In this document: piece by piece, positions 2,248-61,318 of the stretch | Layout: each line of letters opens with the position of its first letter | How positions within the stretch are numbered: position 1 is the stretch's first letter | DNA from: Microbacterium sp. PM5 | Lineage (GTDB): Bacteria > Actinomycetota > Actinomycetes > Actinomycetales > Microbacteriaceae | Assembly: GCF_003293595.1 (NCBI RefSeq) | Contig: NZ_CP022162.1 | Location: 342,346-406,345, forward strand | DNA: 64,000 nucleotides | Direction: 5' to 3' | The notes under the pieces: generated by a model | Databases searched by the model: none | What the model saw: only the letters and a program-made list of their open reading frames with translations | Told to the model about the DNA's origin: nothing | Program-made: the position numbers and the translations under genes

Positions 2248-2631
2248 CTCCCTGCCGCCTCGCGCAGACGAACGGGCAGCGGCGTCGCCGAACACTCAGT
2301 GCCGCCACCCGACTTACCAGGTGAATCGAGTGGCGTTTCCCGCGGCGTCACCCGTGTGGATGCTAGGCGGCGAGGCGTTGAATCGGCCCACGAGAGATTC
2401 CGCCCAGGCCGCTTCCACCATGCGATGGCGGAACGGCCACAGTACAGACCGACCGACCTAGTCGAGCCGCCCAGCAATAGAACAACCGAGGCGACTCGGT
2501 GGAAAACTGCTGGCCCACGAACAATCAAGTACAAAAGCAATGCACGCAGGCATCCATGATGGTCGGCGGCATCTAAAGCTATCCGGCTCCACTTACCTGC
2601 ATCCAAGAAAAATACCTGGATAGGGGACAAA
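2248..2631. other. intergenic stretch without a recognisable gene
   Basis: About 380 bases between the ATPase hairpin and the NERD pseudogene. Short frames exist on both strands, but they show no motif, no ribosome site and no codon bias typical of the neighbours. Nothing else is recognised here. Confidence 0.5.
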
Positions 2632-3294
2632 TCACGGCTCGTTCGACCAGGTCACCTCGGCGCGAACGGCCGCCACCACTACCGCCAGCTGAGTGGGCTC
2701 GAGAATCGGCTTCTGCTTCTTCAACCACCGCACGAGCTGGGGCGCCGTCAGCACCGCGATGTCGTCCGGCTGCTCGCGAATGGTGATCTCTTTGGCGCCG
2801 ACGATCACGATCGCGCCGCGCACAGGGACGCTCGAGCCGATCACGGCTTCGAGCAGTTTTTGGGTTCTCGCGACATCGTAGCGCGTGTTCCGCAAGTGGT
2901 CTGTCTTCTGACCACTGACGAGCAGCCGGCGACTTCCGACCCAGATGCGCGCGCCTTCGTGGAACTTCGAGTTGATGGTGAACACACCGGCCGCGCCGAC
3001 GACCACGTGGTCGATGTCGCTCCCGCGCGTGCCGGCCGGCACCGGATGAAGCACCGTCTAGCCGCCGTCGAGCGACTCAAGACGCGCTGCCACGTCCAAC
3101 TCACCAAGCGCGCCGAGATACCACGGACGCGAATCCTCGGAGAGCGGCGATCGGCCGAGGAACCGCGCGAATCCTGAACGCGGGAGGACGTCTGCTTGAA
3201 CGCGGAGGCACTCGGCCATGACGGACGCCGCGGCGACCGACCCGAAGGCGTGCGTAGCGTCGGTGGGCAGATGAGGGGGGATTTCAGTTGTCAT
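2632..3294 (-). pseudogene. NERD-domain protein gene split by an in-frame TAG
   Basis: Seen: two fragments of 78 and 140 residues lie in one reading frame, separated only by TAG at 3060-3058. Joined, they give a 220-codon NERD (nuclease-related) protein: GALGELDVA near residue 65, then DIDHVVVG at 93-100 and GVFTINSK at 103-110. The core pattern I-D-H-x(n)-G-V-x-x-I-x-x-K is intact. Known: NERD proteins normally have an aromatic residue, commonly Trp, just before the V-L-H strand, where this stop falls, so a TGG-to-TAG change is the simplest explanation. NERD domains are related to restriction-type nucleases. Inferred: recently inactivated, since both halves remain clean. A GTG after the stop could initiate the second half, but that product would lack the first helix and its Glu. 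Sequencing error or readthrough are alternatives. Confidence 0.75.
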
Positions 3295-4915: not shown

Positions 4916-5611
4916 TCAGTTCGACCAATCAAGGAGCGGGTTCGTCCCCAAGAACATGCTGGCCTTTGTGAATGGAGGATCCTGCCCGAGCAGCGGGCGG
5001 TTGGCGCGACTAGCCCGGGGGTGGGCGTTCTCGAATCGCCGGTGTCTGGTATTCGAGACTTGAACGCTGTCTGCGAGATCAACAGCGAACTCACCCCAAA
5101 GGAGCCATGCCACGCGGTCGCTCTTCGCCGCGACCAACTCCAGGACCGCGCGCGTGAAGTCCTCCCACATCGACGTGTCAGGAGTCTTCGCCCCAATGCG
5201 ATGGGTCAATGCGGCATTCAGGAGGAGAACTCCACGGTCAGCCCAGGGAGACAGATCGTTGCTTAGAGGGCTCAGATTCAGATCACGACGGAGCGATCCG
5301 AAGATCTTCCCAAGAGACTGCGGTCGGCCAACGCGACCAACGGACGGCATCGAGAACGCAAGCCCGTGCGCGTGGGCCGGATCTGGATAGGGGTCCTGAC
5401 CAAGGATCACGACACGCACTGAAGCGAGGGGCGTGAGATGGAATGCACGGAACACGTCCGTGCGTCGCAGTGGAGAGACTGCTCCCGGCCTGGCCGAATA
5501 GAGAGCGTCGACCACTGCATAGAGGCTATCTAGGTCGAGCGTCCGGGGCAGTGCGTCCGCCCATGACGCCGGCAATCTTGAGTAGTCCGCGACCTGCACG
5601 GCAACGCTCAT
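4916..5611 (-). CDS. divergent family-1 uracil-DNA glycosylase
   Basis: Seen: 231 residues, normal length for Ung. The water-activating motif is GQDPYPDP (71-78): Asp73 and Tyr75 are kept, but the usual His after Tyr is Pro. The base-recognition strand LLLNAALTH keeps Asn132. The C-terminal loop normally reads HPSPLS; here it is HPRASR with His197 kept, so the Leu that intercalates into DNA in Ung is missing. Known: Ung excises uracil from DNA, and DNA glycosylases that remove modified phage bases (Brig1) have been described as antiviral. Inferred: given the changed loops and the defence-type neighbours, it may act on another base or serve a defence role. Ordinary uracil repair is still possible. 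It is transcribed away from the SIR2 gene, with about 210 bases between them. Confidence 0.8.
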   Translation of the reverse strand: MSVAVQVADYSRLPASWADALPRTLDLDSLYAVVDALYSARPGAVSPLRRTDVFRAFHLTPLASVRVVILGQDPYPDPAHAHGLAFSMPSVGRVGRPQSLGKIFGSLRRDLNLSPLSNDLSPWADRGVLLLNAALTHRIGAKTPDTSMWEDFTRAVLELVAAKSDRVAWLLWGEFAVDLADSVQVSNTRHRRFENAHPRASRANRPLLGQDPPFTKASMFLGTNPLLDWSN

Positions 5612-5820: not shown

Positions 5821-8800
5821 GTGAGGCTTACCAACGATATCGACGTCCCAAACGACCCGTTGGCAGCCGCACGTAACGTCCGACTGGTCTTGTTCGTCGG
5901 TGCGGGCGTATCTATCAACGCACCGTCTAGCCTGCCGCTCTACGACGGCCTGGCTCGCACAATCGCTCAAACTCTCGGCGAGGAGTACGACGCTACTCTC
6001 ACCCCGGACCGGTTCCTGGGTCAGCTAATGCAGGCGCATCCGCTCGTCAAGGATCAGGTGCGCGCGATCACCGGGAGTGCTCAGTCGCTTCTCAACGCCA
6101 ATCACCGAGCACTCGCTCGCCTCGCGACCGCAGCCGGTGCGCCGATCGTTACGACGAACTACGACCTACACATTGAAGCCGCAGCCTCCGAGACAGCCCT
6201 GAGTCTCGGCGAAGAGTACTCCGGGCCTGCTCTGCCACTGGGGAGAGAGGTTCGGGGGCTCGTCCACCTACATGGCTCCGCGTCTCGTCCAGCGTCGGAG
6301 CTCGTGGTCACCGACGACGACTTCGGGCGGGGCTATCTCACCGACGGGTGGGCTCGACGATTCGTGCAGGATCTCTTCGAGCACTGGACAGTGCTCTTCG
6401 TCGGCTACAGCCACAGCGATGTAGCCATGACGTACTTGGCCCGTGGGCTTCCGCCGAGCGCGCAGCCTCGGTTCGTGCTCACCGACGAGCCGAGCAGCCC
6501 CCGGTGGGAGAACCTCCGGATCACACCGGTGGCATATCCAAGCGACGACGAACACGCGGCCCTTCCCCTGGCGTTGGACGCATGGGCGTCGTTGATGAAC
6601 ATGGGTGTCTTGGACCACCACGCGCGCGCGAAGGAACTCGCGGCCGGGGCTCCTCCGTCAGTGCCGGAGGAAGCGGACTACCTCGCCGATGTGCTGAACA
6701 CACCGTCGGGGGCACGGGGCTTTGTAGCCGCGGCGACGGGCTACGAGTGGCTCCGGTGGGCTGAGGAACAACCGGCATTCGCGGTGCTTTTCAGTATGGG
6801 ACGAGTCGAGAACGAGGCGTCTCGGGTTCTGGCAGGGTGGTTCGTCGATGAGTACGTCTCGGTTCCCGAGCGTTCGGCGCTCGCGCTTGGCATTGCCGCT
6901 CGGCTCGGACCGGTCATATCGACCGAACTCCAGTGGGAGATATCCCGCGCCGCGCGCGCGTTGCGAGCCACGGCGCCCGAAGATGCGCGTCGCTGGATGA
7001 CCATTCTGATCGCCGCGTTGCGAACAGACCCCGCAGAGTCAGGCCTGACCTGGTTCGTTGGCTAGGGCAACCCGCTATCGGGAGTCGATGCGCTCCCGTT
7101 GCTTCGCCGCGCGCTTGTACCCCGCCTCGTGCTGAAGGAAGACCACCCATGGTTCCCAACCGACGAAGACGAGACGCAGCCGCGTCGCGTATCGGCAGCG
7201 ATCGAGTGGGCGACCTCAGACAAAATCCTGAAGAAGTTGTGGGAGCAGATCGCCGAGGAAGCGGATGAGAGCGCTGACCGGGTGCTTCAGATCGCGGAAC
7301 AGGCACTGACGGACGCCTATGAACTGTTGCGTGCGTTCGATCCGGAGCGCACTTTCGATCCTTGGTCCTTTCGCCGCTCCGCAATCGAACCGCATGAACA
7401 GGACCGGTTCGGCGATGAGGAGAGCACCGTCATTGACATGCTCCGCGACAGCGCCGCGCTCACCACGTCGAACAGCGCTGACCTATCGGCCAGATGGCTC
7501 ACGAGTCCCCACGCTCTCTTCCGAAGGCTCGGACTGCACCTGGCCATCGAGTCTCCACACCTGAGCGGCGACGAGAAGTGCGTGACCGTGCTCGGCGGTC
7601 TACTTTACGACCCTGAAGCGAAGCACGAACTCTTCCGTCTACTTCAGGTCGTCGCACCTGACCTGAGCCCTGACTCCCGGCAACAGTTACTCGCAGCCGT
7701 TCTCGCTGGCCCCCCGCGTGATGACCCGGTGGAGGGGGTCGAATCACGATTCCGCCGCAGAGCGATCTTCGACCGAGCCGAGTGGCTCAGCAGGTACGCC
7801 ACGCCCTGGCCGGAACTGGACGCCGCCATCTCTGAGATCCGCGAAGAAGAGCCAGAGATGGGGATTCGTCCTCACCCGGACCTCGATCACTACATGACAT
7901 CGGGCACGTGGGGCGGAAAGATGCCGCACACCGTCGATGACTTTCTTGCGCGCGTATGTGAGAACGGGGCACGCTTCAGCGTCCAGTCGCTGCTCGACCT
8001 CGACTATTCGGAACGAAACTTCGACGAACCAACGTGGGATGACACCTGCAAACTCATACTAGAGGCCGCGGCGGCGCAGCCCGCAATCGGTCTTGAGCTG
8101 CTGCCGGAAGTCGCGCTCGGGCCCGTCGCGCAGCACCATGATCTCCTCGGGGCGATTCTGCACGGATGGAGCCAAAGCGCGCTCCTCGTGGAGCGGATCG
8201 ACGACCTCGTCGGCGCGTTAGGAATGCTGAGCGCCAGACCCGAGCTCACTCGAGCCGTGAGTGAGGTGCTGAAGTCAGTCTCGAAACCATCGGAGGGTGC
8301 AGTAGATCCTCCAGTGCTGGAACGGCTCGACACGATTGCGTCCGAGCTGTGGGTGAAGAACGCGCCTGGGTTCGATCCCGGGAAATGGAGCGATTCCCTC
8401 ATGCGCGGCTTGAACGCGTGGCCTGGCATCGTGGCGCAGTATTGGCTGAATCGCATCGCGTCAAGGTGGCAGGCGGCACCTGAACGATGGGCGGGACTTG
8501 ATGCGGCCGAAGCCACCGCGCTGAAATCTATGCTGTACTCGCCAACGCCCGCACAGTCCGCTGCCGCCAGCCTGCTGACCGGGAAGCTCCATTTCCTGTT
8601 CGCCGCTGCCTCGGTGTTCACCGCAGCGCACGTGTTCCCGCTGTTCGACCCGGACCCGTCTGAGTTTGCACCTGACGCTTGGTTCAGCTTCCTCCACGAG
8701 CCGAGAACTCCACCAGATCTCCTCGACGCGGGCTTCTGGCAGCTCCTTCTTCGTTCCGCGGATGCCGGCACGAGCCGTGAAGGCCATATGTCCAACCGAT

Positions 8801-9445
8801 ACTGGAGGACAATGGCGTCCGTCGCGACGTTCTCCGCCGCGACATCCGTGGATCGCCCCGCCTTGATCGATCTTCTGGCGGCGCCGGAGCGCGCGGGCCA
8901 ACTCACGGAGTTCATCCGAGCGCTAAGCGAAACCGTGGGTGAGCTCGACGACGCTGGCCGTGAGGCGCTTTGGTCATCCTGGCTGAAGAAGGCGATCGAG
9001 ACGCGCCAAGCCGCTGCTCCAGGCGTCCAACCCTCGACGGAGAAGACGGCCTGGGGGGGACCTCGCCCTCGAACTCGGAACCGCCGACGCACTGACGCTC
9101 ACGGCGGCGTGCCCCGGTGCCATGGGCGACCGCACGAGATTCCATCACCTTGAGGCACCGGTCGCGCAGCCGATCGGGGACTTGCTGGTCAGGATCGCCA
9201 CCACTCGATTGCGCTTGACGGAAAGTATCGACTGGCACTTGAGATACGAGTTGGAGGAGCTCGCTGAGCGCGTGAAGCCTGCCGCTAACTCCGCGTCACT
9301 TCGTGCGCTCGCCGAACTCGCCGTCGCACGCGGCGTTCACGAAGCTCTCTCCTGGATCAGTTCCTCGGTCCGGCGGCGATCAGACCCGCACCGACCACTA
9401 GGCGTAACCATCGTCAACCCGCTCGAAAGTGCGATTGGGCGGTGA
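5821..9445 (+). pseudogene. large SIR2-domain gene (DSR-like) broken by TAG and a frameshift
   Basis: Seen: a GTG start at 5821 is chosen because upstream codons are antisense to the glycosylase or lack family sequence. An AAGGAGG at 5781-5787 fits no close in-frame start. The SIR2 NAD-binding core has GAGVS at 27-31, TTNYD at 111-115, LHG at 150-152 and FVGYSHSD at 194-201. The frame stops at TAG 7063-7065 (codon 415) and then continues in the same frame to about 9052, where a run of seven G (9053-9059) shifts it by one base. The +1 frame carries coherent protein to 9445. Removing one G and reading the TAG as sense gives about 1,207 residues with a long C-terminal part of no known motif. Known: long SIR2 proteins such as DSR1 and DSR2 kill infected cells by NAD+ depletion. 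Inferred: an inactivated or truncated relative. A shorter SIR2-only product of 414 residues could still be made. Confidence 0.75.
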
Positions 9446-9810
9446 CCCCGAACTGTACGCCCACTCTCACTGAGCCAGCGCTGCGCGAAGAGAACGCCGA
9501 TGAGTGAGGCGACACCCACCGCCGCAATCGCAAGAACCAGGCCTCGCCTTCGGTAACCGCGCCATCCGAAGATCAATAGCACGCCGAGACCGATGAGGTG
9601 AGCTAGGACAAGCGGAAGCCCTCCGACGACTTCGGCGAACCCCGCCATAGAGGTCTCCGCCGCGACCGCCTTGCCCTGCTCGCTCTGCGCTTCCTCCTGC
9701 GCCAGGCCGTACCAGGCCCATGCGATCGCTGAGGCGACCACGCCGAAACCAGCGATCACCCAGAAGGCGATGCGGGCGCCCTCGGGTTCGGACAGTGGCT
9801 GTGGTTCCAC
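9337..9810 (-). CDS. small membrane protein with three predicted helices
   Basis: 157 residues, unknown family. Three hydrophobic segments are visible: IAFWVIAGFGVVASAIAWAW (about 14-33), a second at about 60-82 ending in LLIFGW, and a third at about 89-108 ending in VLFAQRW. The last ~45 residues are hydrophilic, look unlike a membrane-protein tail, and run antisense over the end of the SIR2 gene (9337-9445). This suggests the original C-terminus was replaced when the accessory segment joined the core here. Function unknown. Confidence 0.5.
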   Translation of the reverse strand: MEPQPLSEPEGARIAFWVIAGFGVVASAIAWAWYGLAQEEAQSEQGKAVAAETSMAGFAEVVGGLPLVLAHLIGLGVLLIFGWRGYRRRGLVLAIAAVGVASLIGVLFAQRWLSESGRTVRGHRPIALSSGLTMVTPSGRCGSDRRRTEELIQERAS

Positions 9811-9951
9811 TCATTGAGCCTACGAGCATGTGGCTCGCGGGGCGGGTGATCACAGACTTCGACAACCGCACTCGAATCACATCTCCGCGACGACGTGGGT
9901 GGCCCAGATCGCACCACCCTGCACCGGCCGTCCGACGCTAGGTTCGGTCTC

Positions 9952-10905
9952 GTGAGTGATAACCGCCGTGTGCCCATTTCGCCGCAGAGTGTCGATGCTC
10001 CGCTGACGACGTCGGCGGTCTTCCTGGTCATGACGGTGGGCGACGACGCCGACGAGATCGCCACCGCGCGCTCGGTGTTGGGGGACCTCTCGGGACTGCT
10101 CAAGACCGTCGGCATCCGAGACCTCGATGCCGCGCTCGCCTGCACGGTCGGCATCGGCGCGCGTGTCTGGTCGGCGCTCACCGGACGCTCGATGCCGGCA
10201 GAGCTCCACCCCTTCCGGCCTATCGACGGCGCGGTGCATCGCGCCCCGAGCACGCCGGGAGATCTGCTCTTCCACATCCGCGCGAACCGCCGCGACCTGT
10301 GTTTCGAGTTCGAGAGGCTGTTGCTCGAAGCGCTGGGCTCGAGCGCTGTCGTCGTCGACGAGACCGAGGGCTTCCGCTATTTCGACATCCGCGACCTGCT
10401 CGGTTTCATCGACGGCACGGCCAACCCGGTGGGCGCCGACCTGCCCGAGTCCACCCTCGTCGGCGACGAGGACCCCGCCGGACGCGGCGGAAGCTACGTC
10501 GTCGTGCAGAAGTACGTGCACCCGCTCGACCGGTGGAACGCGCTCTCCGCAGAGCAGCAGGAAGCAGTCATCGGGCGACGCAAGTTCGACGGCGTCGAAC
10601 TGGACGATGCGGAGTCGGGCCAGAAGGCGCACAAGACCCTCGCGACCATCGTCGACGACGATGGCGTCGAGCACGACATCCTCCGCGACAACATGCCGTT
10701 CGGCAGCCCGGCGACCCAGTTCGGCACTTACTTCATCGGCTACTCGCGTCGACTCTGGGTGATCGAGAAGATGCTGGAGCGGATGTTCATCGGTGACCCT
10801 CCGGGACTCCACGACCGACTGCTCGACTTCTCCACTCCGCTCACCGGCTCCACCTTCTTCGTACCGTCGGCCGACGTCCTCGATGGCCTGGGCGACTCCG
10901 CCTAG
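9952..10905 (+). CDS. DyP-type haem peroxidase
   Basis: About 317 residues from a GTG at 9952. An earlier in-frame ATG at 9895 would add a tail not typical of the family. The DyP signature GFIDG lies at 151-155 with the distal Asp. Further on, HDILRDNMPFG holds the probable proximal His region and GTYFIGYSRR the conserved Arg. The pattern and length fit the bacterial type-B dye-decolourising peroxidases, which use hydrogen peroxide to oxidise dyes, phenolics or Mn(II). There is no signal peptide, so it is cytosolic or carried in an encapsulin; no encapsulin gene is adjacent. It ends in a four-base overlap with the convergent kinase-like gene. Confidence 0.88.
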   Translation: MSDNRRVPISPQSVDAPLTTSAVFLVMTVGDDADEIATARSVLGDLSGLLKTVGIRDLDAALACTVGIGARVWSALTGRSMPAELHPFRPIDGAVHRAPSTPGDLLFHIRANRRDLCFEFERLLLEALGSSAVVVDETEGFRYFDIRDLLGFIDGTANPVGADLPESTLVGDEDPAGRGGSYVVVQKYVHPLDRWNALSAEQQEAVIGRRKFDGVELDDAESGQKAHKTLATIVDDDGVEHDILRDNMPFGSPATQFGTYFIGYSRRLWVIEKMLERMFIGDPPGLHDRLLDFSTPLTGSTFFVPSADVLDGLGDSA

Positions 10906-11465
10906 GCCCGCTCGGAACTCCGCGGCTCAGCGATCAGTGTCTCGATCGTGGCGAGGCGCTCTGCGGGCGATCCCGTGACCTCCGTCACCGTCAGCTTCGC
11001 CGGGATGACGTCAGAGTCGTCCAGAAGGTCCAGCAGCACGTCGTTCATGGCCTCGCGCAGCGCGGCATCCTCGTCGTCGCCGACGTTGATCGGATGAGCA
11101 GCCGTCAGCGGGAGCACCACGAGGTGATCGACTGTCTCCAGCGCCGCGCGCGTGCGGACAATCGCACTCGAGAGCGTCGAGCGGTCGAGCGCCGTGCGCC
11201 CGAGCTCATCCAGTGCCAGCAGATAGGCCAAGAAGTCGAGCGGGCCGCGCTCGGCGATGAGGTTCTCACCCGATTCTCGCTCGATCAGCCGGCCCGCTGC
11301 GAGTCGCAGCTGCGAGGCGAACATCGCCGCGGCCGGTCGATCGTCCGACTCGTCGATGAGCTCGAACGGGTCGGCGAACACGGCGTACTCCGGATGCCGC
11401 CGCGCAAAGTCGGCGATGAGCGTGCTCTTGCCACTGGCATGAGTTCCCGAGACGACGATGCGCAC
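10902..11465 (-). CDS. AAA/P-loop NTPase, kinase-like
   Basis: 187 residues with a Walker A loop at the extreme N-terminus (SGTHASGKST, about 6-15), then an E-R-G-P-L-D-F segment near 74 resembling the lid or substrate region of small nucleoside-kinase-like ATPases (AAA_28 type). A single compact domain with no membrane segment. It is a probable ATP-dependent kinase of a small substrate, which I cannot identify. It lies 43 bases downstream of the lipoprotein gene on the same strand. Confidence 0.65.
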   Translation of the reverse strand: MRIVVSGTHASGKSTLIADFARRHPEYAVFADPFELIDESDDRPAAAMFASQLRLAAGRLIERESGENLIAERGPLDFLAYLLALDELGRTALDRSTLSSAIVRTRAALETVDHLVVLPLTAAHPINVGDDEDAALREAMNDVLLDLLDDSDVIPAKLTVTEVTGSPAERLATIETLIAEPRSSERA

Positions 11466-11508
11466 GAGCTGACACTACGCGACGAGCTGAAACCGCCGGG
11501 CCGGCACC

Positions 11509-12282
11509 TCAGCCGCCGAACTCCGCCTTGAGGAAGTACGGCGTCTGGTTCGCATTGCACGCGGCGCCGATCTGCGCCACATCATCCGCAATGCCCGCCT
11601 GTGCGGTGCCGGGCTCGGTGGCCGTCGACACCGTGTGCGACATCGATGTGAGCGGCCCCTTCAGGCTCGACGTGGAGGCGGCTGCGAGGGCAGCGAGCTG
11701 GGATGATGCCGCGGTGACCCGCGCCGTCCAGGTCGCGGCATCGAACGCCTTGTACTGGGAGTACCCCTGATCGGCGTTGATGAGGGCGCTGTAGATGTCG
11801 ACGAAGGCGGCGCAGTCCGCGGTCACCGCGGCATCCCGAACGAACTCCGCGGTGGAGAACAGCGGCGTTGCCGTCCACGCGACGTCGTCGTCCACCGTCA
11901 CCGCGATGGAGGGTTGGGTCTTCGCATCCACCGGCCACGCGAGCGTCGCCGGCGCGCCGCACGTTCCGCTGATCGGGGACGTGTTCTCCGCCATCGCATC
12001 TCCGAACTCGACGACGTAGTGCCCGATGCCCTCGCAGGTGAAGTCGATCGACACCGAGCGGGCGCCCGCGGGAACGGGGGAGTTCAGCCCCGGCCATCCC
12101 GTCGCACCGGTTCCCGTCACGGTGGCACCCGCCGTCGATGTGGCTGTGGCCTCGTCGCTGGCGGAAGAGCTCGGTGACGGTGCTGCGCCGATCGTTGTCG
12201 CGCAGCCCGACAGGACGATGGTCGCAGCGACGAGAGCGGCGAGGAACGTAGTCGTGTGGGTCGTCGTTCGCGAGGGCGTCAT
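11509..12282 (-). CDS. putative secreted lipoprotein
   Basis: 257 residues. An N-terminal hydrophobic segment ends in a lipobox (VLSGC, Cys27), followed by a Ser/Thr/Ala-rich linker to about residue 60. The mature part contains at least three further Cys and a beta-rich then helical composition. It is probably anchored to the outer face of the membrane. No catalytic motif or family is recognised. Confidence 0.75.
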   Translation of the reverse strand: MTPSRTTTHTTTFLAALVAATIVLSGCATTIGAAPSPSSSASDEATATSTAGATVTGTGATGWPGLNSPVPAGARSVSIDFTCEGIGHYVVEFGDAMAENTSPISGTCGAPATLAWPVDAKTQPSIAVTVDDDVAWTATPLFSTAEFVRDAAVTADCAAFVDIYSALINADQGYSQYKAFDAATWTARVTAASSQLAALAAASTSSLKGPLTSMSHTVSTATEPGTAQAGIADDVAQIGAACNANQTPYFLKAEFGG

Positions 12283-12387
12283 CTCTGATGTCTATCAGCG
12301 GCGGTCGCGGAACGCACGGGAGACGCCGCGCCACCGCATTCGCGAAGCGCAGTAAGTCCGAGAAGAAATTCTGAACACTGGCACCTC

Positions 12388-12403
12388 GTTCACGAATATG
12401 AAC
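12388..12403. promoter_or_regulatory. operator-like inverted repeat before the IclR gene
   Basis: GTTCACGAATATGAAC, with GTTCA/TGAAC arms, lies 12 bases before the regulator ATG. A near-identical 16-mer lies before the sugar operon at 13247-13262. The pairing of the two sites points to the IclR protein binding both and regulating itself. Confidence 0.6.
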
Positions 12404-12415
12404 TAGAGTCGCGGT

Positions 12416-13183
12416 ATGAGTGACGCCGTGGTCAAGTCAGCCGATCGGGCGCTCGTTGTCCTCGAGTTCGTCGCCGAGCGCAGTGCCGCGACCTTCAGCG
12501 AGATCGCCGGCGGTCTCGCCCTTCCGCGCTCCAGTGCACACGGGCTGCTCAACACCCTCGCCTCGAGCGGCTGGCTCGTGTTCGACCCCGCGACCAAGCT
12601 CTACTCGCTCGGGCTCCGCGCATGGCAGGTGGGTCAGCGTTACGAGGGTCACCGCGACATCGTCGCGGCCGCGCAGCCGCGCATGGATGCCCTCGCGGCT
12701 CAGCTGGGGGAGACCGTCCAGCTCGCGCGACTCGACGGCCTCGAGAACGTCTACATCGCCATCAGCGATTCGCCGAATCCCATGCGGCTGGCCTCGTCGG
12801 TCGGCATGCGCCTGCCTTCCTATGCCACGGGAATCGGGAAGGCCCTGCTGTCCATGCTCGATCCGGCCGACGCGGGCCATCGCCTGCGCGCCATCGAACG
12901 GCGCGCGTATACGGCGCACACGGTGACCGGCGCCGACGAGCTGCTCGCGGTACTGGGTGCGGCGCGAGCGCAGCGCTTCGCCGTCGACGATGAGGAATTC
13001 ACCGAAGGATGCCGCTGCGTCGCCGTGCCGCTGACGCGGATGGACGCCGCCGGCCTCTACACCGCGATGTCGGTCACCATGCCCACCTTCCGCACCACCG
13101 AGGCGTGGCCCCGCGACGTTCTCGGGCCTCTTCGCGACACCGCCGCGGCCATCCAGGACAGCCTCGGGATCGCTGCGCCCTGA
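12416..13183 (+). CDS. IclR-family regulator of the L-rhamnose locus
   Basis: 255 residues. The N-terminal winged helix-turn-helix (about 7-65) contains TFSEIAGGLALPRSSAHGLL. The C-terminal effector-binding domain (about 80-250) has the IclR-type G-M-R-L-P-S-Y-A-T-G-I-G-K-A-L segment and a conserved Cys near 202. It reads toward the rhamnose operon, which begins 93 bases after its stop, and matching operators flank it. Inferred role: controls import and breakdown of L-rhamnose, sensing the sugar or a pathway intermediate. Whether it represses or activates is open. The operon operator starts right after the -10 box, which favours repression. Confidence 0.88.
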   Translation: MSDAVVKSADRALVVLEFVAERSAATFSEIAGGLALPRSSAHGLLNTLASSGWLVFDPATKLYSLGLRAWQVGQRYEGHRDIVAAAQPRMDALAAQLGETVQLARLDGLENVYIAISDSPNPMRLASSVGMRLPSYATGIGKALLSMLDPADAGHRLRAIERRAYTAHTVTGADELLAVLGAARAQRFAVDDEEFTEGCRCVAVPLTRMDAAGLYTAMSVTMPTFRTTEAWPRDVLGPLRDTAAAIQDSLGIAAP

Positions 13184-13197
13184 GGGTCAACTCTTGC

Positions 13198-13226
13198 TTG
13201 ACAAGCGGGTTATTCACGCCCACTAT
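13198..13226 (+). promoter_or_regulatory. promoter of the L-rhamnose operon
   Basis: A consensus -35 box TTGACA (13198-13203) is followed by a 17-base spacer and a -10-like CACTAT (13221-13226). The operator region starts at the very next base, so bound regulator would cover the transcription start. Confidence 0.6.
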
Positions 13227-13262
13227 GTTCATATACGTACATCAAGGTTCACGTATATGAAC
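13227..13262. promoter_or_regulatory. double operator of the L-rhamnose operon
   Basis: GTTCACGTATATGAAC at 13247-13262 repeats the element before the IclR gene, differing only in the centre. A second copy, inverted and imperfect at one end, is GTTCATATACGT at 13227-13238. Together they fill the space from the -10 box to the ribosome site (AGGAG, 13267-13271). Confidence 0.6.
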
Positions 13263-13276
13263 ACAAAGGAGTGATC

Positions 13277-14257
13277 GTGAGCTGGAAGAAGAGGCTGGTC
13301 GCGCTGGGGGCGACCGCTGTGATTGCGAGCCTGGCGTTGTCCGGGTGCAGCAAGGCAGGAGACTCCGCGGGCGCCGCAACGGCGAGCGCGGGGCAGAAGA
13401 TCACCATCGGCGTGGTGATCACGGGTATCTCGATGTACCCCTACTACCAGGCCCAGGCCGCCGGCATCGAAGCCGCCGCGAAGGCCGAAGGCAGCGACGT
13501 CGACGTCGTCGTGCTCGACAGCCAGGCGAGTGACCAGACCGAGCAGTCGAACGTCGAGCAGATGATCAACCGCAAGGTCAACGCGCTGATCTTCACGCCC
13601 GGCTCCGCCGAGGCCGGCGCGGCCCTCGCCACCCAGGCCAAGAACGCCGGCATCCCCGTCGTCGCCGTCGACCGCAAGGCAGGCGACGACACGGCCGCCT
13701 ACGTCGGCTACGACAACGTCAAGCTCGGCGAGGCCATGGCCACCTATGCCGTGAAGCAGCTGGGTGGCAAGGGCAACATCGGCGGAGAGATCGGTGTCGC
13801 CGGTGTCGTCAACGTCATCAACCGGGCCAAGGGCTGGCAGAACGTGATCTCCCAGAACCCCGGCATCACGTATGTCGGCGAGGTCGAGACCGGGTTCGAC
13901 CCCGCACAGGCCTACACCGTGACGCAGAACCTGCTCACCGGTCACCCCGAGACGCAGTACCTGCTCGTCATGGACGACAACACCGCACTCGGCACCATCC
14001 GCGCCGTCAAGGAGTCCGGCAAGGACGTGAAGGTCGTAGGCCTCGGCGCGCAGACTGCGGGCCTGAAGGCCGTGCAGGACGGTGACATGGCCGCAACGGT
14101 GCTCATGAAGCCCTACGAGCTCGGCTACGTCGGCCTGCAGACCGCCGTGAAGATCGCGCGCGGCGAGAAATACGACCCGGCACCCACCTTCGACAACCCC
14201 GTCATCACGAAGGACAACGTCGCCGACTTCATCGGCAAGGAGGGCGTGGGCTGGTGA
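13277..14257 (+). CDS. sugar ABC transporter substrate-binding lipoprotein
   Basis: 326 residues from GTG 13277. This start is preferred to the GTG at 13271 because AGGAG then sits five bases upstream. A lipoprotein signal ends in LSGC with Cys24. The rest is an RbsB-like type-1 periplasmic-binding fold: ITIGVVITGISMYPYYQ at the start of lobe 1, then a ligand-site NALIFTPG, and a hinge region ending in PVITKDNVADF. It captures the sugar outside the cell for the ATPase and permease encoded next. L-rhamnose, or a derivative, is inferred as ligand from the downstream catabolic genes. Confidence 0.9.
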   Translation: MSWKKRLVALGATAVIASLALSGCSKAGDSAGAATASAGQKITIGVVITGISMYPYYQAQAAGIEAAAKAEGSDVDVVVLDSQASDQTEQSNVEQMINRKVNALIFTPGSAEAGAALATQAKNAGIPVVAVDRKAGDDTAAYVGYDNVKLGEAMATYAVKQLGGKGNIGGEIGVAGVVNVINRAKGWQNVISQNPGITYVGEVETGFDPAQAYTVTQNLLTGHPETQYLLVMDDNTALGTIRAVKESGKDVKVVGLGAQTAGLKAVQDGDMAATVLMKPYELGYVGLQTAVKIARGEKYDPAPTFDNPVITKDNVADFIGKEGVGW

Positions 14258-15777
14258 ACACCCCCACGGCAGCCGCCGCCTCCGGCACTCCGGTGCTGGA
14301 GGCGCGCGGCCTCACCAAGAGCTTCGGCACCGCTCGCGTGGTCGACGGCATCCACCTGAGCCTGCTGCCCGGACGCGTGCACGCGCTCGTCGGCGAGAAC
14401 GGCGCCGGCAAGTCGACGATCATCAAGATGCTGTGCGGGGTGGAGCAGCCTGACGAGGGCGAGTTGCTGCTCGACGGCGAGGCCATCACTCTGCACGCAC
14501 CGGCGGATGCCGCGTCGGCGCGCATCGCGACCGTCTACCAGGAGCTCGACGTCATCGACGAGCTGACCGTCGCCCAGAACGTCATGCTGGGGCGCGAAGT
14601 GCGCCGGGGTCCGTTCCTCGACGACCGCGCCTCGGCGCGCCTCGCCGCCGCCGCGCTGGCCCGAGCCGGCTCGACCGTCGACACGCAGGCCTACCCGCGC
14701 GACCTGTCGCTCGCGCAGCAGCAGCGCATCGTCATCGCCCGCTGCCTGCTCGCCGAAGCGCGCGTGCTGATCCTCGATGAGCCCACGGCTGCCCTCGGCC
14801 CCCACGAGGTCGACGACCTCGCCGTGCTCGTGCGGGAGCTCACCGCCTCCGGCGTGAGCGTGCTGTTCGTCTCCCACCGTCTCGAGGAGGTCATGGAGAT
14901 AGCCGACGAGGTCACCGTGCTCCGCGACGGTCGCGTCGTGTCGCACCGGCCGGTGGCCGAGACCGACCCCGCCCGGATCATCCAGGAGATGACCGGCCGT
15001 GAACTCGACCTCACGGCCGTGCGCTCGCCGGCCGCCGCGGCCGCATCGGCCGAACGGCCCGTCGTGCTCGAACTGCGGGGCCTGCCGATGCGTGAGAGCA
15101 CGCTCGACCTTGCGGTGCACGCCGGGGAGATCGTCGGCATCGCCGGGCTCGCCGGCTCTGGACGCACGCGTCTCATCTCGCACATCATCGGCGATCCCTG
15201 GCACGGGGGACAGGTGATCATCGACGGCACCGACGTCGGACGACTCGATCCCGCCCGAGCGCTCGCCGCCGGCATCGCGTTCCTGCCCGAAGACCGCAAG
15301 CGCGACGGCCTCGTGCTCGAACAGTCCGCGCCCTTCAACGTGTCGCTGTCGGGGCTCATCCGCGCCGGCCGGCGATGGACGAGCCGCCGCGACGACACCC
15401 GCCGTTTCGACGACGCGATGCAGCGGATGTCGCTGCGCGGCAACCCGCGCGGACCCGTCGGGCGCCTCTCCGGCGGCAACCAGCAGAAGGTGCTCCTCGC
15501 ACGCCTGCTGGCGACCGATCCGCGAGTGATCATCCTCGACGAGCCCACGCGCGGCGTCGACATCGGCGCCAAGAAGGAGATCTGGGAGCTGCTGGAGGCG
15601 CTGGCCGACAGCGGACTGGCCATCGTCATGGTCTCGTCCGAGCTTCCCGAGATCCTCCGCCTCAGCGACCGCATCCTCGTCGTCGCCGAGGGTCAGGTGA
15701 CGGGCGAGTTCCCGGCATCCACACCTCAGCACGTGCTGCTGCGCGCCGCCCTGCCGGCGCGCGAGCGCGTGGCCTGA
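14254..15777 (+). CDS. sugar ABC transporter ATP-binding protein, two domains
   Basis: 507 residues with the duplicated nucleotide-binding domains of the RbsA/XylG class. Domain 1 has Walker A GENGAGKST (47-55), a signature in LSLAQQQRIVIARC and Walker B VLILDEPTAAL. Domain 2 has the degenerate loop GLAGSGRT usual for this class, LSGGNQQKVLLARLL, and VIILDEPTRGVD. Its GTG start overlaps the stop of the binding-protein gene (14254-14257), so the two are translationally coupled. It powers uptake of the sugar, with L-rhamnose inferred. Confidence 0.93.
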   Translation: MNTPTAAAASGTPVLEARGLTKSFGTARVVDGIHLSLLPGRVHALVGENGAGKSTIIKMLCGVEQPDEGELLLDGEAITLHAPADAASARIATVYQELDVIDELTVAQNVMLGREVRRGPFLDDRASARLAAAALARAGSTVDTQAYPRDLSLAQQQRIVIARCLLAEARVLILDEPTAALGPHEVDDLAVLVRELTASGVSVLFVSHRLEEVMEIADEVTVLRDGRVVSHRPVAETDPARIIQEMTGRELDLTAVRSPAAAAASAERPVVLELRGLPMRESTLDLAVHAGEIVGIAGLAGSGRTRLISHIIGDPWHGGQVIIDGTDVGRLDPARALAAGIAFLPEDRKRDGLVLEQSAPFNVSLSGLIRAGRRWTSRRDDTRRFDDAMQRMSLRGNPRGPVGRLSGGNQQKVLLARLLATDPRVIILDEPTRGVDIGAKKEIWELLEALADSGLAIVMVSSELPEILRLSDRILVVAEGQVTGEFPASTPQHVLLRAALPARERVA

Positions 15778-15807
15778 TCCGTCTTCCACAGAAAGGTCCA
15801 CGTCGTC

Positions 15808-16815
15808 GTGACCACCACTCTGCCCGCCACCGCCGCGGAACCGCGCCCGACCGGCTCGCGCCGCCGTCTCACGCTCTCGACGCTGCGGGGAAGCACCCTC
15901 CTGCTCGTGCTCGCCGCCCTCGTCGTCGTCTTCTCGCTGCAGTCGCCGCTGTTCTTCACCTACGGCAACTTCGTCTCGATCCTGCAGGCCTGTGTCGTCG
16001 TCGGCCTGCTCGCGCTCGGGCTGACCGTCGTCGTGCTCACCGGAGGCATCGATCTCTCGTTCGCCTCGGTGATGGCACTGACGAGCGTGACCGCGGGAGC
16101 CATCAACGTCTCGCTCGGCATGCCCGCGGTCGTTGCCGTCATCGTCGCCCTCGTCGTCGGGGCCGCCTTCGGCGCGCTCAACGGGCTGCTCGTTGCCATC
16201 ACACGGCTGCAGCCGTTCGTCGTGACCCTCGGGACGTACTCGATCGCGCTGTCGCTCTCGCTCGCCGTCTCCGGTGGCGGCCCCATCCAGGGCCTGAGCG
16301 AGGACTTCACCGACCTCACCGCGTTCCGTGTCGCCGGCATCCCGACCGCCGTGTTCGTCTTGGCGCTCATCGTCGCGGTGCTGTGGGTCGCGACCCGCAA
16401 GACCCGGTGGGGACGCTTCGTGTACGCGACGGGCGGCAACGAGAGCGCTGCGCGCCTGGCCGGCGTGCGCATCAAGCGCATCAAGTTCAGCGCCTACGTC
16501 CTCTGCGGACTGACCGCCGCCGTCGCCGGCGTGCTCAACACCAGCACCCTTCAGGTCGCCCAGCCCCAGCCCGGGTTCAACCTGCTGCTGACCGGCGTCG
16601 CCGCCGTCGTCGTCGGGGGCGCCTCGCTGACCGGCGGTGTCGGCAGCATCGGCGGCACGGTCGTCGGCGTCGTCCTGCTCGCCGTGCTGTCCAACGGGCT
16701 CAACGTGCTGACCGTGGCACCCTTCTGGCAGAACCTGGTGCTCGGCGTCGTCATCATCGGCGCGGTGCTCCTGAACGAGACGGTGCGCGCCCGCTCGGCG
16801 GAGTCGGGCTCGTGA
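15808..16815 (+). CDS. sugar ABC transporter permease (RbsC type)
   Basis: 335 residues with about nine or ten hydrophobic segments, starting with LLLVLAALVVVFSL. It carries the RbsC-family GGIDLSFASVMAL motif and the inner-membrane loop GGNESAARLAGVRI, where the ATPase couples. There is no separate second permease gene, so a homodimer is expected. The GTG start lies 30 bases after the ATPase gene. It forms the membrane channel of the importer. Confidence 0.92.
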   Translation: MTTTLPATAAEPRPTGSRRRLTLSTLRGSTLLLVLAALVVVFSLQSPLFFTYGNFVSILQACVVVGLLALGLTVVVLTGGIDLSFASVMALTSVTAGAINVSLGMPAVVAVIVALVVGAAFGALNGLLVAITRLQPFVVTLGTYSIALSLSLAVSGGGPIQGLSEDFTDLTAFRVAGIPTAVFVLALIVAVLWVATRKTRWGRFVYATGGNESAARLAGVRIKRIKFSAYVLCGLTAAVAGVLNTSTLQVAQPQPGFNLLLTGVAAVVVGGASLTGGVGSIGGTVVGVVLLAVLSNGLNVLTVAPFWQNLVLGVVIIGAVLLNETVRARSAESGS

Positions 16816-17753
16816 TCGACGTCGTCGACGCGCACCACCACCTCTGGGTGCTCGGCACGCCCGGCCAGCGCTACGCGTGGCTCGAAGACGCGCCGGTCGA
16901 GCGCTTCCACGGGCCCGACGCGCCGCTGCGCACCGACTACGAGCTCGACGACTTCCGCGCCGACGCAGAGGGGCTCCGCGAGATCGGCATGCGTCTGGTC
17001 GGCTCGGTGCACGTCGATGCGGGCGCGTCCGACGGCGTCGCCGAGGCGCGCTGGATCTCGCAGCTGCGCGAGTCGGAGGGGATGCCGCAGGCCATCGTCG
17101 CCGGCGCCGATCTCCTCGCCGCCGACGCCGAGGAGCGTCTCCGCGCGCTCACCGGCATCCCGGGTGTCGTCGGCGTGCGCCACATCCTCAACTGGCACCC
17201 CGATCCGCGCTTCACCTACACCGCACGCGCCGACATCATCAGCGACCCCGTGTGGCTCGCGAACTTCGCCGCGCTCGTACAGGCGGACCTGTCGTTCGAC
17301 GCGCAGGTCTACCCGGATCAGTACGCCGACCTCGCGCGGCTCGCACGGCAGCATCCCGAGGCGCAGATCATCCTCAACCACACCGGCATGCCGATCGGAC
17401 GCAGCGACGACGACATCGCGCACTGGCGGGTGCAGCTGCGCGCTCTCGCCGCCGAACCGAACGTGTCGATCAAGATCTCCGGCCTCGGCATGGTCGATCA
17501 CCGGTGGGATGCCGCGTCGCTCCGTCCCTTCGTCCGTGAGGCGATCGAGGCCTTCGGCGCCGAGCGCGCCATGTTCGCCAGCAATTTCCCGGTCGACAAG
17601 CTCTACTCCTCCTACGCACAGCTCTACACGGCGTTCGACGAGCTGACCCGCGATGCCTCGGCATCCGAGCGGGGCGCCCTTTTCGGGCTGACGGCCCGAC
17701 GCATCTACCGCATGGGTCCCCTCGGCCCGTCCAGACAGGAGACGACACGATGA
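16812..17753 (+). CDS. amidohydrolase-family lactonase, probable L-rhamnonolactonase
   Basis: 313 residues from a GTG that overlaps the permease stop (16812-16815). The Amidohydrolase_2 metal site begins with DAHHHLW at residues 6-12. VRHILNWHPD follows near 120, IILNHTGMPIG near 190 and MFASNFPVDKLY near 255, the usual ligand-bearing strands of the TIM barrel. Known: LRA2-type lactonases of this family open L-rhamnono-1,4-lactone to L-rhamnonate. Inferred: that step here, since the dehydratase for L-rhamnonate is two genes downstream. The closely related L-fuconolactonases cannot be excluded by motif alone. Confidence 0.82.
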   Translation: MIDVVDAHHHLWVLGTPGQRYAWLEDAPVERFHGPDAPLRTDYELDDFRADAEGLREIGMRLVGSVHVDAGASDGVAEARWISQLRESEGMPQAIVAGADLLAADAEERLRALTGIPGVVGVRHILNWHPDPRFTYTARADIISDPVWLANFAALVQADLSFDAQVYPDQYADLARLARQHPEAQIILNHTGMPIGRSDDDIAHWRVQLRALAAEPNVSIKISGLGMVDHRWDAASLRPFVREAIEAFGAERAMFASNFPVDKLYSSYAQLYTAFDELTRDASASERGALFGLTARRIYRMGPLGPSRQETTR

Positions 17754-18790
17754 AGGCGCTGACTCTGCAGGAGTTCGGCCGTATGGCGGTCGTCGAGCAT
17801 CCCGACCCGCGCGCTGAGGACGGGACTGTCGTCATCGCGGTCATCGCGACCGGCATCTGCGGCTCGGACATCCACGGTTACACGGGGGAGAACGGCCGGC
17901 GCTTCCCGGGGCAGATCATGGGTCATGAGACGGTCGGACGCATCATCGAGGTCGGTGGAGGTGTCGACGGCCTCGCGGTGGGCGACCTCGTCACCGTGAA
18001 CCCGGTCGTCATCCCGGCCACCGATGCGGATGAGTACCGGGGACGCGAACAGCACCACCCCGATCGATACGTCATCGGTGTGCGCGCGGATCTGCCCGCC
18101 GCCTTCGCCGAGCGGCTGTGCGTTCCGGCGCGCAATGTCGTCCGCCTTGCCGACGACCTGCCTCCCGACTACGGCGCGCTGATCGAGCCGCTCGCGGTCG
18201 CCGTGCACGCCGTGCGCCGGGTCGGCATCGCACCCGGACACAAGGTGCTCGTGCTCGGCGGCGGACCGATCGGGCAGTCCGTCGTGCTCGCGCTCATCAT
18301 GGCCGGGGTCACCGACATCGTCGTGAGCGAACTGGATGCCGGGCGGCGCGACCTCATCTCTCGCCTCGGCGCGACAGCGGTCGACCCGACGAGCTCCCCG
18401 CTGGTCGCGTCGGTCGAAGGCGTGTTCGGTTCGCTCGCCGACGTCACGATCGATGCGGTGGGCATCAGCCGCACGCTCGAGCAGGCGCTCACCGCAACGC
18501 GGTTCGGCGGTTCGATCTCCCTCGTCGGGATGGGGGCGCCGACGGTGGAGCTCTCGGCGTTCCGAGTGAGCACCGAGGAGCGCACGATCGTCGGCAGCTT
18601 CACGTATTCGTCGGAGGACTTCGACGACGCGGCGCACTGGATGTCGACGGCGCCCGCCGCGGCTTCCGCCCTCATCAGCGAGGTGGTGTCGCTCGATGAC
18701 GCCCCCGCGGCATTCGCGCGCCTCGCGCACTCCACGACCACGCCGGGCAAGGTGCTCGTGCGCTTCAACGAAGGGAACGGCGATGTCTGA
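17750..18790 (+). CDS. zinc-type alcohol dehydrogenase, probable pathway dehydrogenase
   Basis: 346 residues, medium-chain dehydrogenase fold. Catalytic zinc residues Cys37 (GICGSD) and His59-Glu60 (MGHE) are present, and the Rossmann loop is LGGGPIGQ near 165-172. The lobe that holds the structural zinc (about 84-110) has no Cys at all, so the usual four-Cys site is absent. The start overlaps the lactonase stop by four bases. Inferred: it oxidises L-rhamnose to the lactone, or 2-keto-3-deoxy-L-rhamnonate at C4. The operon has only one dehydrogenase for these two steps, so the other enzyme must lie elsewhere or this one is used for both. Confidence 0.8.
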
Positions 18791-61242: not shown

Positions 61243-61318
61243 GGGCCTATGGCGCAGTTGGTAGCGCGCCTCGTTCGCATCGAGGAGGTCAGGAGTTCGA
61301 ATCTCCTTAGGTCCACCA
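61243..61318 (+). tRNA. tRNA-Ala (anticodon CGC)
   Basis: A 76-base cloverleaf with encoded CCA. The acceptor stem GGGCCTA/TAGGTCC includes the G3-U70 pair that marks alanine tRNAs. The anticodon loop TTCGCAT gives CGC, reading GCG. The T-loop TTCGAAT is normal. Accessory DNA starts directly after it, so the 3' end is a probable phage or island attachment site. Confidence 0.95.

What the first reader, a model, noticed from the sequence alone, without database searches (positions are those of the whole stretch)
5821..9445. A ~1,207-codon SIR2 defence-type gene interrupted by one amber and one homopolymer frameshift
Seen: SIR2 motifs at the N-terminus, an in-frame TAG at codon 415, unbroken continuation, then a one-base shift in a G7 run that restores coherent protein to 9445. 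Known: long SIR2 proteins (DSR1/DSR2 class) cause NAD+ depletion on phage infection. Inference: either a recently inactivated abortive-infection gene, a toxin silenced because its expression is costly, or a strain in which the SIR2 domain is made alone as a 414-residue protein. The C-terminal ~790 residues match no family I know and may be a new sensor module.
Basis: partly seen in the sequence, partly recalled or inferred. Interest (0 to 1): 0.72.

Follow-up and report, generated by a model that had tools for sequence, protein, structure and literature searches.

The report
Recently broken DSR1-type phage-defence gene
A Microbacterium strain carries a known kind of anti-phage defence gene that appears to have been knocked out recently by two small mutations, while related bacteria still carry it intact.

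Summary
In detail: an in-frame TAG (7063-7065) and a one-base frame change at a G7 run (9053-9059) interrupt one coding sequence starting at GTG 5821. The C-terminal part is not a new sensor: both halves match Dsr1 models, a profile of relatives aligns end to end with an annotated Dsr1 (1127 columns), and an intact relative's model resembles DSR2. It belongs to a divergent actinobacterial DSR1-like clade below NCBI's Dsr1 cut-off (264 vs 1400 bits). Twelve other genomes of the genus have it in one open frame; none of 8 examined has the predicted Trp. Against the nearest relative only one other frame-broken gene, an integrase-like ORF, and no nonsense change turned up in 105,650 aligned bases, so two assembly errors here are unlikely. 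Selection is not relaxed: the loss is young. Beside the same right flank the nearest relative carries type III restriction and PD-Lambda-1 genes. By analogy with DSR2 the 414-residue product is probably inert. An ordinary pseudogene of a known kind.

The parts
5821..7065 (+). 5' piece of the interrupted DSR1-like gene: GTG start, SIR2 NADase domain plus first helical block, 414 aa, ending at TAG
   Evidence: all 8 relatives examined have GTG or ATG at the aligned start
5899..5913 (+). GAGVS motif (aa 27-31)
   Evidence: motif named in a PMC12931631 passage
6151..6165 (+). TTNYD motif with catalytic-type Asn113; His151 lies at 6271-6273
   Evidence: invariant columns; Asn/His pair named in a PMC11087589 passage
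7063..7065 (+). premature TAG, codon 415; the column falls in a low-confidence loop (residues 405-418 of the model of relative P0001) between helical blocks
7066..9052 (+). continuation of the same reading frame: helical-solenoid part of the DSR1-like protein
9053..9059 (+). run of seven G where the reading frame changes by one base
9059..9445 (+). C-terminal piece in the shifted frame; homologous to about 9364, then a ~26-residue tail without counterpart, to TGA
4916..5611 (-). upstream divergent neighbour, uracil-DNA-glycosylase superfamily ORF
   Evidence: UDG 7e-11
2530..2640 (+). conserved ~100-bp element that elsewhere lies just before a long ORF (TrwC relaxase in the two scanned); left of the variable region
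9882..12306 (+). right flank where synteny with nearest relative G080 resumes (93% nt identity)

Best explanation
This is a young pseudogene of a DSR1-like anti-phage NADase. The intact form (1,179-1,189 aa in 8 relatives) has an N-terminal SIR2 NADase and a C-terminal alpha-helical solenoid. By analogy with DSR2, the solenoid is taken to sense a phage protein during infection and open the SIR2 active site, so that NAD+ is depleted and phage growth stops (inferred). It was probably acquired horizontally into a defence-gene locus beside relics of mobile elements (inferred). In this strain a premature stop at codon 415 and a one-base frame change at a G run prevent a full-length product. At most a 414-residue SIR2 fragment is made, probably inactive without the solenoid. 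The absence of relaxed selection points to recent loss.
For: Both lesions are in the sequence. Both pieces match Dsr1 models; profile-profile alignment to an annotated Dsr1 covers 1127 columns at 24% identity, probability 100%. One-frame copies in 12 of the 15 other genus genomes with a match. dN/dS against three relatives is 0.09-0.14 in the first two pieces and about 0.23 in the short last piece; intact-versus-intact controls give 0.10-0.13 and 0.15-0.22. Amino-acid changes unique to the window versus unique to G138: 10 vs 12, 24 vs 26, 0 vs 5. TAG ends 23 of 104 called genes. Against G080 the only other coding frame break found in the own genome is an integrase-like ORF, and no nonsense change was found. 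Third-position GC about 0.73 against a median of 0.88 for called genes, a set that was itself selected for GC3 above 0.75; defence genes beside the same right flank in G080. DSR2's SIR2-only protein is monomeric and inactive even with its trigger (PMC10973363, passages).
Against: No reads were available, so an assembly error at one site, above all the G7 run, is not excluded. The assembly has at least one other frame break in alignable genes. No strain of the same species with the gene could be compared. Loss of function is inferred from sequence only. Unrelaxed selection is also what an intact gene with assembly errors would show. Synonymous sites are near saturation in the comparisons (dS 0.67-2.0).
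Confidence: 0.8

Rival explanations
1. Assembly or sequencing error: the strain carries an intact DSR1-like gene and one or both lesions are artefacts.
For: A homopolymer length change is a classic long-read error (recalled); selection looks unrelaxed; one other frame break exists in the compared stretch.
Against: In 105,650 aligned G080 bases, 59 frameshifting indel clusters gave 4 candidates at 2 places: one lies between two intact minus-strand genes (window 45034; genes scanned), the other is an integrase-like ORF left of the window that is disturbed in G080 too. Of 21 nonsense candidates 20 were antisense to an open frame by rule and the last by inspection. Own arithmetic: with an upper bound of 4.7 events per 105,650 bases about 0.16 would be expected in this gene, so about 1% for two or more.
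Confidence: 0.12
2. The 414-residue SIR2 piece is retained as a functional product (solo NADase, split system with the downstream piece, or dominant-negative).
For: The stop falls in a low-confidence loop just after a folded block, so the fragment could fold; SIR2 motifs intact.
Against: The position is a post-hoc coincidence (34 of 1166 residues lie in the listed low-confidence segments). DSR2's SIR2-only protein is inactive (PMC10973363, passages). None of the 12 one-frame relatives is split there. The downstream piece carries its own frame break.
Confidence: 0.05
3. Selection against a costly, self-toxic defence gene drove inactivation, rather than drift (not exclusive of the best explanation).
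For: Other broken copies exist: G066 (frame break), G654 (one TAG), G220 (decayed); with the window 4 of 22 genomes with a copy in two samplings.
Against: Against HsdR in the same genus (73 copies over cut-off in 290 genomes, none with a stop inside, three with a frame under 900 aa) the genus figure of 3 of 16 gives Fisher p = 0.07, and 2 of 15, dropping the decayed copy that the HsdR threshold would miss, gives p = 0.20; not significant.
Confidence: 0.25

Closest known systems
DSR1 (defense-associated sirtuin 1; PADLOC Dsr1, NCBIfam NF041818)
   Same: N-terminal SIR2 NADase with the conserved motifs; homology over the whole length including the C-terminal part; apparently a single gene, as no gene was common to the 5.5-kb flanks of 11 copies.
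   Different: Shorter (1,179-1,189 aa in 8 relatives, against 1,268 for an annotated Dsr1); intact relative scores 264 bits against the 1400-bit equivalog cut-off; 24% identity to an annotated Dsr1; the window copy is broken.
DSR2 (Bacillus subtilis; cryo-EM structures)
SIR2-DUF4020 proteins
   Same: Distant relatives carry Pfam DUF4020 in the C-terminal part.
   Different: DUF4020 not detected in the window pieces or in the close relatives scanned.

Membership tests
DSR1 | N-terminal SIR2 domain with GAGxS, TTNxD and catalytic Asn/His | tested here: met
   motif definitions from passages of PMC12931631 and PMC11087589
DSR1 | Match to PADLOC Dsr1 models in both N- and C-terminal parts | tested here: met
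   (3.6e-37 and 2e-21); 8 relatives scanned
DSR1 | Score above the NCBIfam NF041818 equivalog cut-off (1400 bits) | tested here: not met
   P0001 264, P0014 182, P0026 189 bits; annotated Dsr1 2088, four other relatives 202-272
DSR1 | Full-length homology to an annotated Dsr1 | tested here: met
   1127 columns, 7-1268 of 1268, probability 100% (alignment of relatives, not the window copy)
DSR1 | Phage-triggered NAD+ depletion and phage resistance | not testable with these tools
   no experiment; the window copy is interrupted
DSR2 | Sequence membership | tested here: inconclusive
   no chain named DSR2 in sequence searches of solved structures at E up to 1; structural similarity only

The most novel reading that the evidence does not exclude
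An actinobacterial DSR1-like subfamily, distinct enough to miss the curated Dsr1 cut-off and probably with its own trigger, is repeatedly acquired and repeatedly broken because it is costly. In this strain the break at the linker leaves a self-contained 414-residue SIR2 block that may keep a reduced role.
Probability: 0.07. Interest if true: 0.5.

Novelty: new member of a known kind. Interest (0 to 1): 0.2.

Why it matters
It documents a divergent Microbacterium branch of DSR1-type defence genes with natural intact copies that could be tested, one young knockout, and a locus where unrelated defence systems sit beside relics of mobile elements. If broken copies prove commoner than in other defence genes, the fitness cost of NADase defence becomes measurable from genomes. 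The finding itself is an ordinary pseudogene.

Tried and rejected
Recoded TAG: rejected, because TAG is a normal stop (23 of 104 called genes) and no coding frame with a new in-frame stop was found against G080. Programmed or phase-variable frameshift at the G run: rejected; none of 8 relatives has a seven-G run there, and the upstream TAG would block translation anyway. Natural two-gene arrangement: rejected by 12 one-frame relatives. A conserved partner gene: no gene common to the flanks of 11 copies; a metallophosphoesterase ORF lies near three copies (G138, G203, G149) but was not seen among the window ORFs scanned. Structured RNA: no Rfam match near the gene, only a tRNA at 61243 in the window. 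Phage records: no match at 1e-10. Plasmids: two records at 1e-20, one a Rhodococcus ruber megaplasmid with a 1182-aa relative. Excess of broken DSR1-like copies over HsdR: suggestive only.

First assembly control: of 107 G080 ORFs called, 74 were comparable (33 dropped for identity or coverage) and 7 were flagged; none held up as a break in the own genome. Its choice of the longest ORF often took antisense frames, so I replaced it, when checking this report, by indel and nonsense scans of the aligned DNA. They found one true break that the first control had missed (the integrase-like ORF); I lowered the main confidence from 0.82 to 0.80 and raised the error rival from 0.10 to 0.12 for that. 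Six ORFs flagged in the reverse direction were not followed up; the scans give two candidate breaks in G080. Windows with too few substitutions could not be judged, and the scans cover 180 kb around the gene, not the whole genome. The closest intact relatives (P0001, P0002) are known only from metagenome proteins, so dN/dS used G138, G097 and G203.

Full report
What is there. The window is positions 342346-406345 of a single 3,158,683-bp contig. The genus is Microbacterium: two same-genus genomes have contigs of the same length as records named Microbacterium (G097 and P0003, G203 and L063). From GTG 5821 a frame runs 414 codons to TAG 7063-7065, resumes without a stop to the run of seven G at 9053-9059, and homology continues in the next frame. 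All 8 relatives examined have GTG or ATG at the aligned start. Relatives end near the equivalent of 9364; the last ~26 residues to 9445 have no counterpart.

What family. The 5' piece matches Pfam SIR2_2 (5e-18) and PADLOC Dsr1 (4e-37; ThsA and other SIR2 models follow with weaker scores). The middle piece alone matches PADLOC Dsr1 (2e-21) and NCBIfam Dsr1 (3e-30). A profile of 29 relatives (A2) aligns with the annotated Dsr1 of Nitrosococcus halophilus over 1127 columns at 24% identity and 100% probability. The NCBIfam equivalog cut-off is 1400 bits; P0001 scores 264, P0014 182 and P0026 189 and four others 202-272, so this is a divergent DSR1-like clade and not a Dsr1 equivalog. Distant relatives carry DUF4020. 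GAGVS, TTNYD and His151 are intact, matching motifs and an Asn/His pair described in passages of PMC12931631 and PMC11087589.

Intact and other broken copies. In 295 genus genomes (own included) 16 have a match to the middle piece at E up to 0.001. Of the 15 others, 12 are in one open frame of 1103 aa or more (G048 cut at its 5' end by a contig edge), one is cut by a contig end (G044) and two are broken (G066, G220). In 398 family genomes 8 have a match to P0003 at E up to 1e-30: the own genome, G066 and six new genomes, of which G654 has one TAG inside. Together 4 of 22 genomes hold a broken copy; queries and thresholds differed. HsdR in 290 genus genomes gave 73 copies over cut-off with no stop inside and three with frames under 900 aa. 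The difference is not significant (3/16 vs 3/73, p = 0.07; 2/15 vs 3/73, p = 0.20). None of 8 relatives has Trp in the TAG column, and none has a seven-G run at the frame break.

Is the break real, and how old. The nearest relative found, G080, aligns at 91% over 28 kb. A first ORF-based control flagged 7 of 74 comparable ORFs, none of which held up as a break in the own genome, but its ORF choice was poor. Scans of the aligned DNA replaced it. For frame: 59 frameshifting indel clusters in 105,650 aligned G080 bases gave 4 candidates at 2 places. One (window 45034) lies between two minus-strand genes that are intact; the other is an integrase-like ORF about 5.7 kb left of the window, whose own copy is in two frames and whose G080 copy also departs locally. 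For stops: 21 candidates, 20 antisense to an open frame by rule and one by inspection. So one other broken gene was found, a mobile-element gene, and two lesions in one 3.6-kb gene are unlikely to be errors (own arithmetic, about 1%). dN/dS of the pieces is 0.09 to 0.24, close to intact-versus-intact values of 0.10 to 0.22. The window lineage has no excess of amino-acid changes (10 vs 12, 24 vs 26, 0 vs 5), and 5 of 218 otherwise invariant positions are changed against 4 of 217 for G138. The inactivation is too young to have left a trace, or a lesion is an error after all.

Surroundings. Third-position GC of the gene is about 0.73 against a median of 0.88 for called genes, a set selected for GC3 above 0.75. 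Synteny with G080 resumes on the right at 9645-9707 and from 9882. On the left only the 97-bp element at 2540-2636 matches the G080 stretch compared, so the left edge of the variable region is not fixed. Next to the same right flank G080 holds type III methyltransferase and weakly matching type III restriction ORFs and PD-Lambda-1, and an integrase-core ORF. The element recurs in 12 of 12 fetched genus regions, which were chosen for having it, and in G080; it lies just before a long ORF in most, and the two such ORFs scanned, in G049 and G045, are TrwC relaxases. In G080 that relaxase is in fragments; in G097, which has an intact DSR1-like gene, a relaxase fragment lies about 1.4 kb upstream of it. 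Neighbours of other copies include an FRG-domain ORF (G097), HsdR (G149) and an ORF with weak, sub-threshold AAA/NACHT matches (G203). The gene thus sits in a defence locus marked by relics of mobile elements.

How it works. Shown: domain make-up, homology, interruption, lack of relaxed selection. Inferred: the intact form depletes NAD+ when its solenoid senses a phage protein. For DSR2 the trigger is a tail tube protein, and the SIR2-only protein is monomeric and inactive even with the trigger (PMC10973363, passages). DSR1 is said in a review to inhibit phage without killing the cell (PMC10952713, passages). The 414-residue product here is therefore probably inert and the system off.

Verdict. 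Text searches with DSR1, defense-associated sirtuin, DUF4020 and Microbacterium returned no paper whose listing concerns this clade; the library is open-access only, and apart from passages of four papers I saw listings only.

Noticed in passing
window 2530-2640; L037, L075-L086: A ~100-bp non-coding element conserved across Microbacterium lies just before a long ORF, a TrwC relaxase in the two scanned (possible oriT or leader), with type I restriction genes near some; in the window the element remains but tblastn found no relaxase.
   Followed up: partly
L037 (G080:C1:1872001-1892000) 6515-18007: Beside the flank shared with the window the nearest relative carries type III restriction-modification and PD-Lambda-1 genes plus fragments of the TrwC relaxase.
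   Followed up: partly
L052 13919-15023 (left of the window), minus strand: An integrase-like ORF (tyrosine-recombinase motifs by eye, no family search) is frame-broken in the own genome and disturbed in G080 too; perhaps the relic of the element that brought the island.
   Followed up: partly
L046/L066 (G066), L068 (G654), L049 (G220): Three further broken DSR1-like copies: one frame break, one in-frame TAG, one decayed copy lacking the SIR2 part; the excess over HsdR is not significant.
   Followed up: partly
L041 3538-4329, L043 11071-11913, L047 10588-11556: A calcineurin-like metallophosphoesterase ORF lies near the DSR1-like gene in three genomes; possible partner or chance of defence islands.
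   Followed up: no
P0006 (metagenome protein, 592 aa): A close relative (86% to the middle piece) covering only residues 541-1117 of P0001 with a divergent C-terminus; perhaps another broken copy or a contig artefact.
   Followed up: no
window 9365-9445: The C-terminal piece runs ~26 residues beyond the end of its relatives, perhaps marking the right junction of the acquired segment.
   Followed up: no
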